From: a virus
Strand: one strand, 5' to 3'
IMG/VR virus record: IMGVR_UViG_3300025141_000845
Location: 1 to 22,498 of that record
Length of the DNA stretch: 22,498 nucleotides
Part shown: positions 6,470-13,825 of the stretch, piece by piece
How positions within the stretch are numbered: position 1 is the first letter of the stretch
How the letters are laid out: every line of letters begins with the position of its first letter
The notes under the pieces: generated by a model
Databases searched by the model: none
What the model was told of the DNA's origin: nothing
Seen by the model: the letters and a program-made list of their open reading frames with translations, nothing else
Made by a program: the position numbers and the translations under genes

Positions 6470-6654
6470 TGAAACCTAACGACACCAATGGACTTTGGGA
6501 CGACGGTTACCTAATGAAATCTACCCGTGAAAGACAACGCCAAGTGCGGGTAGCAACGGGCGCGATGTGCCGATGCCGCAAGTGCTACTGCTGCGAGGAG
6601 TGGCTGAAAGACAAAGCCGAAGGAAAGGAGATGAGTGATGCCGTGGGTAAATAA
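6469..6654 (+). CDS. Small Cys-rich phage protein (61 aa)
   Basis: Starts in the junction GGGTGAGTGATG. The central part is basic and contains a cysteine cluster CRCRKCYCC (about residues 35-43), which may bind a metal or be structural. It is otherwise unrecognised. The next gene starts 17 nt before this one ends, using the AAGGAG inside this gene. Confidence 0.65.
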   Translation: MKPNDTNGLWDDGYLMKSTRERQRQVRVATGAMCRCRKCYCCEEWLKDKAEGKEMSDAVGK

Positions 6655-7624: not shown

Positions 7625-9052
7625 ATGAGCAGCACATATAAGGGCGACAGCCCCGGCAAGAAAATCACCAGACTGCGGATGTGGCACCAGATGTTCTACT
7701 TCGCCAACTGGCTCGATATGAAGAACGAGGGCATCCTCGTGCTCGCTGGCGATGGCGGTGACCTGTCTGCGCTGGATGGTTGGGGCATAGACCACGACAA
7801 GATTGTGGCTGTAGACATGGAGAAAGACAGTGTAGAGAAGTGCCGCGAGAGGTTTCCGAGCATGCAGGTCATGCACGGCAAGCTGGGCGCAGTCGTCAAG
7901 AACCCCAACGTGAAGTACAACATGGCGCACGTAGACTTCTGTGGTGGACTGTCCATGCCAAACATCAACACGCTGGTCAACGTCATCAACAACGCAGACA
8001 AGAGCCAGCCGCTCATCCTTTCCGTCACTATGCTGAAGGGGCGAGAGTATAAGCGAGCGAACGGTAAGGTTGTATCAAAGCTCCCTCGCAGCCTACGGAA
8101 AAAGTATGCGGCAGAGTTCAGGAGAATGGGTCACCCGATTGCTGCACGCATGATGTTCAACGGCCCATTTGAACCAAGGAGGCTCGTAGACATTGGCGAG
8201 AAGCACCTGCTCAAAGAATGGAGTGAGGTCAAGCACGACCCGTCACACCCGCGCCACCAAGACATGCTCAAGAGGCACGCTGTCACACGCGATGGAAAAA
8301 TCAGCTACCTTGGCACCTGCGTGTCAAGAATGGAGGTGCTGCGAGAATGCTTGATGTCAAGAATGATTCAGGAAGAGGCCACCGATGCAATAAAGGCTGG
8401 AAGGATTCCATCTCACGGCAGCAAGATTAAAGACCTTGATGCGGTGATGGGCATACTTAGTGGTGGCCTGCTTGGGTATCACAGCAAGAACGGCAAGCAG
8501 CACGGCACACCATTTGTGACTATGACATTCGTTGTTGCTCACGGGATAGTCTTGGACCTCATCTCAGGCCCGTTGCATCAGTATGGCGGCGAGAGCTACT
8601 TCGCTGCTGGCGCAACAAGCATAGGGTACCACCGCGCCATGACAGCAGCCGCTGGAGAGATGGCGCTCAAGCCATTCGTATCCGACTACGCGAAGCTCGT
8701 TGGTACAAAGGTAGCCGCCAAGGTGTTCGACCTTCCCAAGGGTACAGTTACAGCGTGGCTGGCCCACAGGAACATGGGCTCATACGACCACTTAAACCAA
8801 CAACTCTATGAGAACTACCTAACCCTTGGGGCAGGTGAGCGCACTGCTGATGAGGCGAGAAGTATGCTTGAAGAGGGCTGCGAGGACTGGGGCATGAACT
8901 TTGGCCCAAGACCGGGAATGAAAAACCTAAGGGGGATATACACGATCGGCGCTGAGATCATAAAACAAAACGGCAGAAGCTCTTACAGTGACTGGGATGT
9001 TGAGGAGACAGATGATGGCCTCATGTTCACAGTGCCGAGGTATTCACGATGA
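7625..9052 (+). CDS. Methyltransferase-like protein with C-terminal HTH-like segment (475 aa)
   Basis: ATG at 7625 after AGAGGAACACC. Residues 36-110 look like the front half of a class I SAM-dependent methyltransferase fold: a first strand and loop ILVLAGDGGDLSAL (37-50), a second strand ending in an acidic residue IVAVDMEKDSVEKC (60-73), and a strand-loop YNMAHVDFCGGLS (98-110) where a catalytic motif would sit. No canonical NPPY/DPPY or PCQ motif is seen, so a DNA base target is not shown. Residues about 354-384 (YAKLVGTKVAAKVFDLPKGTVTAWLAHR) resemble a helix-turn-helix, suggesting DNA binding. The middle (about 215-350) is unassigned. It may act on DNA or RNA, but the substrate is unknown. 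The end overlaps the next gene as ATGA. Confidence 0.65.
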   Translation: MSSTYKGDSPGKKITRLRMWHQMFYFANWLDMKNEGILVLAGDGGDLSALDGWGIDHDKIVAVDMEKDSVEKCRERFPSMQVMHGKLGAVVKNPNVKYNMAHVDFCGGLSMPNINTLVNVINNADKSQPLILSVTMLKGREYKRANGKVVSKLPRSLRKKYAAEFRRMGHPIAARMMFNGPFEPRRLVDIGEKHLLKEWSEVKHDPSHPRHQDMLKRHAVTRDGKISYLGTCVSRMEVLRECLMSRMIQEEATDAIKAGRIPSHGSKIKDLDAVMGILSGGLLGYHSKNGKQHGTPFVTMTFVVAHGIVLDLISGPLHQYGGESYFAAGATSIGYHRAMTAAAGEMALKPFVSDYAKLVGTKVAAKVFDLPKGTVTAWLAHRNMGSYDHLNQQLYENYLTLGAGERTADEARSMLEEGCEDWGMNFGPRPGMKNLRGIYTIGAEIIKQNGRSSYSDWDVEETDDGLMFTVPRYSR

Positions 9053-9752: not shown

Positions 9753-9827
9753 ATGAACACATACGTTCTTAGGCCTTGCTGTGGCACTCAACAGAAGCAC
9801 ACGGGGAGGTGTCGCAATGCCAAGTGA
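9753..9827 (+). CDS. Possible zinc-binding microprotein (24 aa)
   Basis: The ATG at 9753 directly follows AGGAGAAACAAC, the leader used by at least five other genes here. The product starts MNTYVLRPCCGTQQ and then has HTGRCRNAK, so two cysteines and a later His and Cys (C9, C10, H16, C20) that could hold one zinc. It overlaps the start of the next gene by 11 nt. The ribosome site is better than that of many larger genes, which supports it despite its length. It could instead be a leader peptide for the 444-residue protein. Confidence 0.5.
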   Translation: MNTYVLRPCCGTQQKHTGRCRNAK

Positions 9828-11151
9828 AAAACTGATGGATGGAATCAAGAGTGCTGTGGGTGTCCACAGCGTCTATCTTGCCGCCAAACACGACGAGAAT
9901 CTGGCTGGAAGGTTCAGCCACACGGAGGGAAAGTCCTTAGTGGATGGGCCAACCAAGGCAACAAAGCGGTCTATCGCAAACGTCATGGTCTACATGGCTG
10001 GAAGGTACAGCAAAGACCTGACCTTTGAAGAGGTAGAGATGGGTCTACTCGCTGCCGCGACATCAGTAGTGTCCGATGGAAAGCGACAGAAGTCTGGGCC
10101 AAACTTTGATGTGATTGGCGCAGAGCTTGCGGGAGAGATTGAAGGCAAGCTAACGCCGGACGAGCTTGGTGCAGAGATTAAAGACATCATCGACAGGTTC
10201 CAACTGTACGACCCTGCATCGCATTCGTATCGAACGGTTGAGCAGGGACTCGGTGTCGCCCTCAGGATGCTTGGGTGGGACCGCCGTCGCCAGATGACCA
10301 GCGGCACCCGAGCCTACAGGTGGTACCCGCCAGAGGGGTTCTTCGATGCCAGCACACCAAACGAGGTGAGCGAGCCAGTGGATATCGCCATTGATGCGAG
10401 CGGTGTCGATGATGTGTTCGATGACTGGTCTGATGATATCGCTGAAGATGTGGTGGTCGAAGAGAAGCCAAAGCCAAAAAAGAAGCAGAGCGGCGTCAAG
10501 CCAGACGACGAGCTTGCTGCGCGCATCTCAAGCATGGGCCTATACCCCGGCATCAGTTCATATGAGGTAGCTATGGCGAGCTATGACTTCATTGGTAACG
10601 GTATCGATGTTCCCAAGTCTGAGCCAGAGATGCCCCACAAGGCCAAACTTTCCGTCGGGGCAACCATGAAGAACATGGGCTGGGGCAAGAAGACACGGCG
10701 CATCGATGGCATACCTCACGTTGGCTGGCATCCACCAGAAGGATGGGAGGAGCCAGAGCAGCCAGAGACAGTGCTTCGCAAGAAGGAAGAGGATGAGCCA
10801 GACGATGTGTTCACCGAGCCGGTGGCTGATGAGCCTGCGTCTGTGGCGGATGGCCTGCCTCGACTCAGTGGGACCGCTGACGAGGTGGACGATGACCTAC
10901 CGTGGCCAGACATGACCGACTTCTCTGGCGATGCTGGTGAGGAAGGTGACGAGGAGCCTGTCGAAGAAAGAGCCTACATCAAGGAGATTCACAAAGATGG
11001 GCGGGAAGAAGTCTACATGGCTGAAATCTCGATGGGTAGCACTGGCGTGTACCTGAAGCCAACAGAGGCTTACCCGTCAGAGAGGATGCTCGAATGGGAT
11101 GCCGACGAAGAGATATGGTTCTGCGGCACAGTCATCGGCGGCGAGGAATAG
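9817..11151 (+). CDS. Acidic protein with two copies of a small winged-helix-like domain (444 aa)
   Basis: The ATG at 9817 lies eight bases after GGGGAGG; a GTG at 9781 would only extend it into the microprotein. Residues 138-174 (SYRTVEQGLGVALRMLGWDR to AYRWYPPEGF) and 276-310 (AKLSVGATMKNMGWGKKTRR to HVGWHPPEGW) are clearly two copies of one motif. It resembles the C-terminus of the VapE-like helicase at 16329 (MRVGDIMRQLGYDRVRRRIGGQR-type spacing ending in aromatic residues). In VapE proteins this end is a winged-helix-like DNA-binding part, so DNA contact is plausible here. The linkers are very acidic (about 185-225 and 310-385). The N-terminal 135 residues are unassigned. The stop is followed by a 204-nt gap. 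Confidence 0.7.
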   Translation: MPSEKLMDGIKSAVGVHSVYLAAKHDENLAGRFSHTEGKSLVDGPTKATKRSIANVMVYMAGRYSKDLTFEEVEMGLLAAATSVVSDGKRQKSGPNFDVIGAELAGEIEGKLTPDELGAEIKDIIDRFQLYDPASHSYRTVEQGLGVALRMLGWDRRRQMTSGTRAYRWYPPEGFFDASTPNEVSEPVDIAIDASGVDDVFDDWSDDIAEDVVVEEKPKPKKKQSGVKPDDELAARISSMGLYPGISSYEVAMASYDFIGNGIDVPKSEPEMPHKAKLSVGATMKNMGWGKKTRRIDGIPHVGWHPPEGWEEPEQPETVLRKKEEDEPDDVFTEPVADEPASVADGLPRLSGTADEVDDDLPWPDMTDFSGDAGEEGDEEPVEERAYIKEIHKDGREEVYMAEISMGSTGVYLKPTEAYPSERMLEWDADEEIWFCGTVIGGEE

Positions 11152-12803: not shown

Positions 12804-13067
12804 ATGATGTGTCCAAAATGTGGAGCAAAGACCATGGTGCTGACTTCTCGAAGCGTCTCCAAGCCAGGGAGAGGCTGGTCACTAAGCCACGGGGAGAAGG
12901 CAGTCGGGTGGTACACCCAAGATTTTATCGTTCGAAGGCGAAAGTGCACAGGATGCACGTTTCGTGAGCATACAGTTGAACTTCTTATCGATGACATACG
13001 TGGCATCGTTCAAGAGTCCATACACGGGCACGCGCCCGAATACTTAACAACAAAGGAGAAGAGATGA
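12804..13067 (+). CDS. NrdR-like zinc-ribbon protein (87 aa)
   Basis: Two ATGs in a row (12804, 12807); no strong ribosome site (GGCGGAAACAAAG). The N-terminus MMCPKCGAKTMVLTSRSV and the later VRRRKCTGCTFREHTVE reproduce the zinc-ribbon pattern of NrdR (CPxC, then DSR-like, then RRRRxCxxC). It has a longer insertion between the cysteine pairs and no ATP-cone domain after it. NrdR represses ribonucleotide reductase genes; here only the ribbon is present, so that role is not implied. It overlaps the SSB start as ATGA, so the two are probably translated together. Confidence 0.7.
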   Translation: MMCPKCGAKTMVLTSRSVSKPGRGWSLSHGEKAVGWYTQDFIVRRRKCTGCTFREHTVELLIDDIRGIVQESIHGHAPEYLTTKEKR

Positions 13068-13456
13068 ACAAAGTCATCTTGACAGGAAACTTGGGCCAGA
13101 AGCCTGAGCTTAGGAAGGCCAACTCTGGTATGGCCATTACCAATCTTCGGATTGCAACCAACGAGCGCGTCAAGGACGGCGACCAGTACAAGGACCACGC
13201 TGAGTGGCACACTGTTGTTGTCTTCGGCAAGCAAGCGGAGAACTGTGCTCAGTTCCTCGACAAAGGCTCAAAGGTTGCCGTCGAAGGTAAGATTCGTACA
13301 CGCCAGTACGAAGACAAGGATGGGAATCAACGCAAGAGCACAGAGGTTCTCGCAGACCGCGTTGAGTTTATGTCTCGTCCAGAGAACGGAACAGCCCCGC
13401 AGCAGAGCAGGCCACAGCAAAGCCCAACTGTTAGCGATGACGAGATACCGTTCTAA
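13064..13456 (+). CDS. ssb: Single-stranded DNA-binding protein (130 aa)
   Basis: The OB-fold pattern is complete: MNKVILTGNLGQKPELR, FRIATNE-like LRIATNERVKDG, then EWHTVVVFGKQAENCAQFLDKGSKVAVEGKIRTRQYEDKDGN-type spacing and a Gln/Ser/Pro-rich linker. It ends DDEIPF, the acidic tip by which bacterial SSBs recruit partner proteins such as primase and RecO/RecQ-type enzymes. It coats single strands during replication and RecT-mediated recombination. Length is shorter than the E. coli protein (178 residues), as is common for phage SSBs. Confidence 0.95.
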   Translation: MNKVILTGNLGQKPELRKANSGMAITNLRIATNERVKDGDQYKDHAEWHTVVVFGKQAENCAQFLDKGSKVAVEGKIRTRQYEDKDGNQRKSTEVLADRVEFMSRPENGTAPQQSRPQQSPTVSDDEIPF

Positions 13457-13462
13457 ACTATC

Positions 13463-13613
13463 GGGGATGTGGCGGAATAGAGTAGACGCGGCGAAATGAA
13501 TGACCGGCGACCTGTAGGGTATACACTCAGGTAGGCAGCCAAGGGTGTACACCTTGGTGTGGAATACTTCTCGTTGGCCAATGGCTGTGGGGGTTCAAGT
13601 CCCCCCATCCCCC
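13463..13613 (+). tRNA. tRNA-like element, type II (Leu-like ends), with about 65 extra nt
   Basis: GGGGATG (13463-13469) pairs perfectly with CATCCCC (13606-13612). Directly before the latter is a canonical T arm, GGGGG-TTCAAGT-CCCCC (13589-13605). After the 5' acceptor strand comes TGGCGGAATAGAGTAGACGC, close to the D arm of bacterial tRNA-Leu with GCG/CGC stem. A variable-arm-like hairpin TGGCC-AAT-GGCTG (13575-13587) sits before the T arm, as in type II tRNAs. A normal tRNA-Leu is about 85-90 nt, whereas this is 151. The excess lies between D arm and variable arm and folds as ACCTG...CAGGT (13510-13532) and CCAAGG-GTGTACA-CCTTGG (13539-13557). No anticodon arm can be assigned with confidence. 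CCA is not encoded. It could be an intron-bearing tRNA, a decayed tRNA or a tRNA mimic. Confidence 0.6.
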
Positions 13614-13630: not shown

Positions 13631-13825
13631 ATGCCACTTTACATATTTGAATGCAACGCTTGCGGAAGGTGCGCTGAGGTGCTTCAAAGCTTTGCCGACA
13701 AGTGGCCAGACTGCACAGTGTGCAAGAAGCAAATGAAGAAGAAACCAGCGCTCACCAGCTTCAACCTCAAGGGCGACGGCTGGGCGAGGGACAACTACGG
13801 ACTAAAGAAAGGAGAAACAACATGA
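13631..13825 (+). CDS. FmdB-family zinc ribbon protein (64 aa)
   Basis: ATG at 13631 after AGGAGAATCC. MPLYIFECNACGRCAEVLQSF, then WPDCTVCKK, gives two CxxC knuckles, and the end FNLKGDGWARDNYG matches the FmdB pattern (M-P-x-Y-x-x-x-C-x-x-C-G, then C-x-x-C, then F-x-L-x-G-x-G-W). The family is widespread in bacteria and phages and its role is poorly defined. It overlaps the next gene by ATGA. Confidence 0.85.
   Translation: MPLYIFECNACGRCAEVLQSFADKWPDCTVCKKQMKKKPALTSFNLKGDGWARDNYGLKKGETT

What the first reader, a model, noticed from the sequence alone, without database searches (positions are those of the whole stretch)
13463..13613. 151-nt tRNA-like element with perfect acceptor and T arms but about 65 extra nt
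Acceptor stem, Leu-like D arm, variable arm and T arm are all present in the right order, so this is unlikely to be chance. The insert contains two stable hairpins and an alternative long helix (GGTATACAC with GTGTACACC, 13518-13526 and 13545-13553). It is too short for a known group I or II intron. Possible explanations are a novel small intron, a tRNA mimic that interferes with host translation or tRNA-cleaving defences, or a decayed gene.
Basis: partly seen in the sequence, partly recalled or inferred. Interest (0 to 1): 0.65.

Follow-up and report, generated by a model that had tools for sequence, protein, structure and literature searches.

The report
Phage RNA built on tRNA-Leu
A group of related bacterial viruses carries a leucine tRNA whose anticodon arm has been swapped for a conserved 84-base folded domain and whose amino-acid-charging signals are altered, so it looks like a dedicated non-coding RNA held in a tRNA frame rather than a broken tRNA or one with an intron.

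Summary
13463-13613 matches the Rfam tRNA model above its curated cut-off (30.5 bits, cut-off 29) when the local stretch is searched, and 300 shuffled windows gave no comparable acceptor plus T arm. It is not decay private to this genome. Two diverged copies (L005 = L006; L007) sit at the same place between SSB and a zinc-ribbon gene, and both keep the insert. The frame is a bacterial class II tRNA-Leu whose 17-nt anticodon arm is replaced by 84 nt. All 23 tRNA-type base pairs survive in all copies, with one compensatory change. Signals needed for leucine charging are altered in every copy: A73 became C, C, G; G18G19 is disrupted; U55 became G in two. An intron reading finds no support: no excision yields a leucine anticodon or one shared between copies, no shared bulge-helix-bulge was found, and no intron family matches. 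Best reading: a stable non-coding RNA cut out by tRNA-processing enzymes, a natural 'tRNA scaffold', similar in layout to T4 RNAC. What the insert binds is unknown. Two unrelated enlarged tRNA-like elements occur in relatives. No transcript data.

The parts
13463..13613 (+). whole tRNA-like element, 151 nt including base 73
   Evidence: RF00005 30.5 bits; homologues L005:6403-6552 and L007:6618-6786
13463..13469 (+). acceptor stem, 5' strand GGGGATG (pairs with 13606-13612)
   Evidence: 7/7 pairs in all copies; the GGGGATG/CATCCCT acceptor of L005 and L007 is also that of a phage tRNA-Leu(TAG)
13472..13489 (+). D arm, 3-bp stem GCG/CGC as in tRNA-Leu; GG of the loop disrupted (AGAG here; AG in the other copies)
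13491..13574 (+). 84-nt domain in place of the 17-nt anticodon arm
   Evidence: comparison with tRNA-Leu and with L005/L007
13491..13500 (+). extended anticodon-type stem, 5' strand (GCGA and GAA; pair with TCGT 13571-13574 and TTC 13568-13570)
   Evidence: G-C to A-U compensatory change at alignment columns 31/130, G-U to G-C at 29/132
13510..13532 (+). insert hairpin 1, ACCTG/CAGGT around the invariant loop GGGTATACAC
   Evidence: two one-sided changes, both keep pairing
13539..13557 (+). insert hairpin 2, CCAAG/CTTGG, stem invariant, loop free to vary (6 of 9 bases differ)
13576..13586 (+). long variable arm (class II); tandem duplication of 19 nt in this region in L007
13589..13605 (+). 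T arm GGGGG TTCAAGT CCCCC
   Evidence: 5/5 pairs in all copies; matches bacterial tRNA-Leu
13613..13613 (+). discriminator base: C here, C in L005, G in L007 (leucine tRNAs have A)
   Evidence: sequence; requirement for A73 from PMC9976931
13064..13456 (+). SSB gene directly upstream; the gap after it holds tRNA-Asn, a hairpin or this element in relatives
   Evidence: phrog_44 E 3e-50
13631..13825 (+). zinc-ribbon gene directly downstream
   Evidence: PF09723 34.5 bits

Best explanation
A dedicated phage non-coding RNA built on a tRNA-Leu frame. It is co-transcribed with the genes around it. The acceptor/T-arm half and the D stem let host RNase P and the 3' tRNA nucleases cut out a stable RNA of about 150 nt. 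It is not charged and does not decode. Its working part is the 84-nt domain held where the anticodon arm would be, a branched fold with two hairpins and conserved loop and junction sequence, which most likely binds a host or phage factor. Shown: tRNA-Leu frame, conservation of the frame's helices, alteration of charging determinants, retention of the insert in three variants. Inferred: transcription, cutting, lack of charging. Guessed: that the insert acts by binding a target.
For: Rfam tRNA match above cut-off. Short stretches of the frame match real tRNA-Leu genes of a Salmonella phage and of E. coli, Streptomyces and Acetoanaerobium. All 23 tRNA-type pairs kept in all copies; under random substitution at the observed divergence P = 0.005, at roughly third-codon-position divergence 0.0001. 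Substitutions avoid helices (8/80 vs 17/68, p = 0.03) and in the insert concentrate in one hairpin loop (6/9 vs 7/60, p = 0.0009). L005 and L007 differ at 1 of 150 aligned bases over exactly the tRNA-like unit, although the next gene's third codon positions are only 59% identical. A73 and G18G19, both needed for leucylation in E. coli (PMC9976931), are altered in all copies and U55 in two. An inserted RNA in place of the anticodon arm is what the engineered 'tRNA scaffold' uses (PMC3753655).
Against: Only three distinct sequences, two of them nearly identical, so covariation is thin (one two-sided change) and the shuffle control has no power. The near-identity of L005 and L007 may be recombination rather than selection. 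The insert structure was drawn partly from one of these sequences, and the single-sequence folds do not strongly prefer it. No transcript data. A weakened elbow could reduce RNase P and 3'-end processing.
Confidence: 0.58

Rival explanations
1. A tRNA gene with a small intron of a new kind in the anticodon arm; removal leaves a working tRNA of about 85 nt.
For: The insert lies in the anticodon arm, the usual place for tRNA introns; ARAGORN with introns allowed reports a gene in the window and in L007. X2 in L007 is called Phe(gaa) with a 40-nt intron at a low threshold.
Against: The anticodons called differ between copies: Glu(ctc), Lys(ctt), His(gtg). No excision shared by the two variants leaves a 5-bp/7-nt arm with U33, and none gives a leucine anticodon. 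No shared bulge-helix-bulge. No group I or II intron match in Rfam. A73 and G18G19 are altered, so a leucine tRNA would probably not be charged.
Confidence: 0.1
2. A decaying tRNA gene that took up an insertion in an ancestor; no function.
For: Charging determinants are altered, and L007 has a 19-nt duplication; related phages have a normal tRNA-Asn or a plain hairpin in the same gap.
Against: All tRNA-type helices kept in all copies (P = 0.005 to 0.0001 under drift), changes avoid helices, the insert is retained in all three variants.
Confidence: 0.13
3. A tRNA decoy against tRNA-cleaving defences or toxins.
For: The frame looks like tRNA-Leu; phages do face anticodon nucleases (general knowledge; abstract of PMC2610378).
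Against: The anticodon loop, the target of anticodon nucleases, is absent, and the elbow is altered; no clear defence or counter-defence gene was found among the window proteins tested.
Confidence: 0.1
4. A processing mark between two genes: tRNA-processing enzymes cut the SSB message from the zinc-ribbon message, and the insert is a passenger.
For: Always between the same two genes in its carriers; relatives have a tRNA-Asn or a GC hairpin followed by a T run at the same point.
Against: A plain tRNA or hairpin would do; it does not explain why the insert's loops and junctions are conserved.
Confidence: 0.09

Closest known systems
Phage T4 RNAC (species 1 RNA, 139 nt)
   Same: Phage RNA encoded in a tRNA region; predicted fold has an acceptor-like stem, a long structured arm, a variable-type hairpin and a canonical T arm; function unknown (PMC3014915, PMC9697503).
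   Different: No sequence relation; R1 finds nothing in the T4 region. RNAC lacks a D arm, its acceptor-like stem has two mismatches, and no tRNA model reaches its cut-off there.
Engineered tRNA scaffold (PMC3753655)
   Same: Acceptor, T and D arms kept; anticodon arm replaced by an inserted structured RNA.
   Different: Laboratory design (that paper used human tRNA-Lys3); here natural, on tRNA-Leu with altered elbow and base 73.
Bacterial and phage tRNA-Leu
   Same: Acceptor, D stem, long variable arm and T arm; near-identical stretches.
   Different: No anticodon arm; A73 lost, G18G19 disrupted, U55 lost in two copies.
YrlA (Y RNA-like, RF02553)
   Same: Uses tRNA-type arms in a non-translating RNA (general knowledge).
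   Different: T arm comes before D arm in the RF02553 model; no match to the element.

Membership tests
functional tRNA (tRNA-Leu) | cloverleaf with acceptor, D and T arms | tested here: met
   RF00005 30.5 bits; all pairs kept
functional tRNA (tRNA-Leu) | 7-nt anticodon loop on a 5-bp stem, directly or after excision | tested here: not met
   no excision shared by the copies, no leucine anticodon
functional tRNA (tRNA-Leu) | A73, G18G19 and G18:U55 needed for leucylation | tested here: not met
   C/C/G at 73, G18G19 disrupted in all, U55 lost in two (PMC9976931)
group I or II intron | conserved catalytic core | tested here: not met
   no Rfam match, insert adds only about 67 nt
archaeal-type tRNA intron | bulge-helix-bulge at the splice sites | tested here: not met
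   no motif shared between copies
tmRNA | tRNA-like domain with G3.U70, plus tag reading frame | tested here: not met
   ARAGORN -m finds none; only the T arm matches RF00023, 13.7 bits vs 47; pair 3-70 is G-C
T4 RNAC sequence family | sequence similarity | tested here: not met
   R1 finds nothing in the T4 tRNA region; the element finds no phage record apart from a tRNA-Leu end
phage tRNA-like stable RNA (kind) | discrete stable RNA made during infection | not testable with these tools
   needs RNA data

The most novel reading that the evidence does not exclude
Phages repeatedly turn tRNA genes into carriers of new functional RNAs: the anticodon region is swapped for unrelated structured domains while the tRNA arms keep the RNA processed and stable. 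The Leu-based element, X2 and the L098 element would be separate inventions near the same SSB gene, and T4 RNAC a further case.
Probability: 0.25. Interest if true: 0.75.

Novelty: new variant of a known kind. Interest (0 to 1): 0.52.

Why it matters
Phage RNAs with tRNA-like ends and no known role, such as T4 RNAC, are an old open question. A family whose tRNA parentage is clear, whose charging signals are altered and whose insert is conserved gives a testable case that such RNAs are non-translating carriers. It also shows a kind of tRNA-like gene that a default tRNA finder misses.

Tried and rejected
(1) More copies: three conserved-core pattern scans of viral contigs and one of genome contigs gave only the known copies plus chance matches, those read in full lying in coding-type DNA without tRNA arms. 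(2) SSB, helicase, zinc-ribbon and downstream-gene protein scans gave many relatives but no fourth variant. (3) The R1 match L121:3826-3964 is a hairpin plus T run upstream of SSB, not a homologue. (4) Intron readings with ARAGORN, bulge-helix-bulge and excision enumeration. (5) The short reading frame shared by the copies (NDxRPVGYT.., stop kept) suggested a tmRNA-like tag, but three of the four codon changes alter the residue and tmRNA features are missing. (6) A search of relatives by genome is not available for a virus record. (7) mafft inside a script gave no output; redone with another aligner.

Full report
What is there. The window is a 22,498-base virus record. Its genes include SSB, an XPB/RadD-like helicase, a VapE-type helicase, RecE and RecT. 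ARAGORN with default settings finds no tRNA. Between SSB (13064-13456) and a zinc-ribbon gene (from 13631) lies the element at 13463-13613. When 201 local bases are searched, the Rfam tRNA model matches the whole of it at 30.5 bits, above the curated cut-off of 29, with the extra sequence in the anticodon arm. The whole-window search showed only the T arm, presumably because its filters are stricter. A perfect 7-bp acceptor with a perfect T arm occurs once in the window and never in 300 shuffles.

Relatives. An SSB search found near-identical sequence in L002, L003 and L016, and diverged copies in L005 (= L006) and L007. The insert is present in all. Other relatives have a normal tRNA-Asn(GTT) in the same gap (for example L004, L010, L012, L014, L055, L057, L064-L066, L095, L096), or a GC-rich hairpin and a T run (L008, L011). 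So the gap is a place where small RNA genes come and go. No fourth variant was found in eight scans of viral contigs and one of genome contigs.

Which tRNA it came from. The first 27 nt of the L005 copy match a tRNA-Leu(TAG) gene of Salmonella phage Sw2 at 89%, and the T arm and acceptor of the window copy match tRNA-Leu genes of E. coli, Streptomyces and Acetoanaerobium. These are weak BLAST scores (E 1 to 6) on short stretches, but all four that I checked landed on a tRNA-Leu. A normal Leu gene has 17 nt in the anticodon arm; here there are 84.

Kept and altered. In all three variants every one of 23 tRNA-type pairs forms. Random substitution at the observed divergence would give this with P = 0.005, and at a divergence of 28%, about that of neighbouring third codon positions, with P = 0.0001. 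Over the whole structure one pair changes on both sides (G-C to A-U), five change on one side and still pair, and one is broken in the window copy. With three sequences the shuffle control has no power, and I do not lean on it. What is altered is what leucine charging needs in E. coli: A73, G18G19 and the G18:U55 contact (PMC9976931). Base 73 is C, C and G. The GG of the D loop reads AGAG in the window copy and AG in the others. U55 is G in L005 and L007. Loss of charging itself is inferred from these bases; it was not measured.

The insert. Between the window and L005 copies 13 of 69 core positions differ, 6 of them in the 9-nt loop of hairpin 2; the other 60 positions carry 7 changes (p = 0.0009), three of which keep pairs. 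GGGTATACAC, GGTAGGCA and GTGGAATA are invariant. Conserved loops and junctions beside a free hairpin loop suggest a domain that binds something or folds in three dimensions. L005 and L007 are identical at 149 of 150 aligned positions over exactly this unit, while the next gene differs at 41% of third codon positions; this is strong conservation or recent exchange of the unit, and I cannot tell which.

Intron tests. Removing part of the insert should leave one anticodon in all copies. ARAGORN calls three different ones. Enumerating excisions in the arm gives no solution shared by the variants and no leucine anticodon. There is no shared bulge-helix-bulge and no Rfam intron match.

Similar things. 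L007 has a second, unrelated enlarged element, X2 (6487-6608), 122 nt, with acceptor, D, variable and T arms and two hairpins in the anticodon arm. L098:1457-1615 (same in L099), in phages whose SSB is 51% identical, is a third: RF00005 gives 38.2 bits with a large insert. T4 RNAC folds with an acceptor-like stem, a long arm, a variable-type hairpin and a T arm; the RNAC-RNAD region is found in 764 phage records, and the role of both RNAs is unknown (PMC3014915; PMC9697503). The engineered tRNA scaffold uses the same plan (PMC3753655).

Conclusion. I rate a dedicated non-coding RNA on a tRNA-Leu frame at 0.58. Transcription, cutting and the target of the insert are not shown.

Noticed in passing
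L007:6487-6608: Second enlarged tRNA-like element (X2): acceptor, D, class II-type variable arm and T arm, with a 40-47 nt insert of two hairpins in the anticodon arm and a direct repeat ACTGACTTA; found only in this contig.
   Followed up: partly
L098:1457-1615: Third, unrelated enlarged tRNA-like element (RF00005 38.2 bits) with intact D-loop GG and T loop and two extra structured hairpins before the T arm, about 375 nt after SSB; absent from the close relative L199/L100.
   Followed up: partly
L132:409-547 (T4 RNAC): T4 RNAC folds stably (z = -4.6) with an acceptor-like stem, long arm, variable-type hairpin and canonical T arm, i.e. a tRNA-like layout without a D arm.
   Followed up: partly
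L008 and L011, just after SSB: The gap that holds tRNA-Asn or the element in relatives holds a GC hairpin with matching changes on both strands around ATCCAGACGCACC, followed by a T run.
   Followed up: no
window 7625-9052 and 9781-11151: Two large reading frames (475 and 456 aa) with no match in Pfam, PHROGs, NCBIfam or PADLOC.
   Followed up: no
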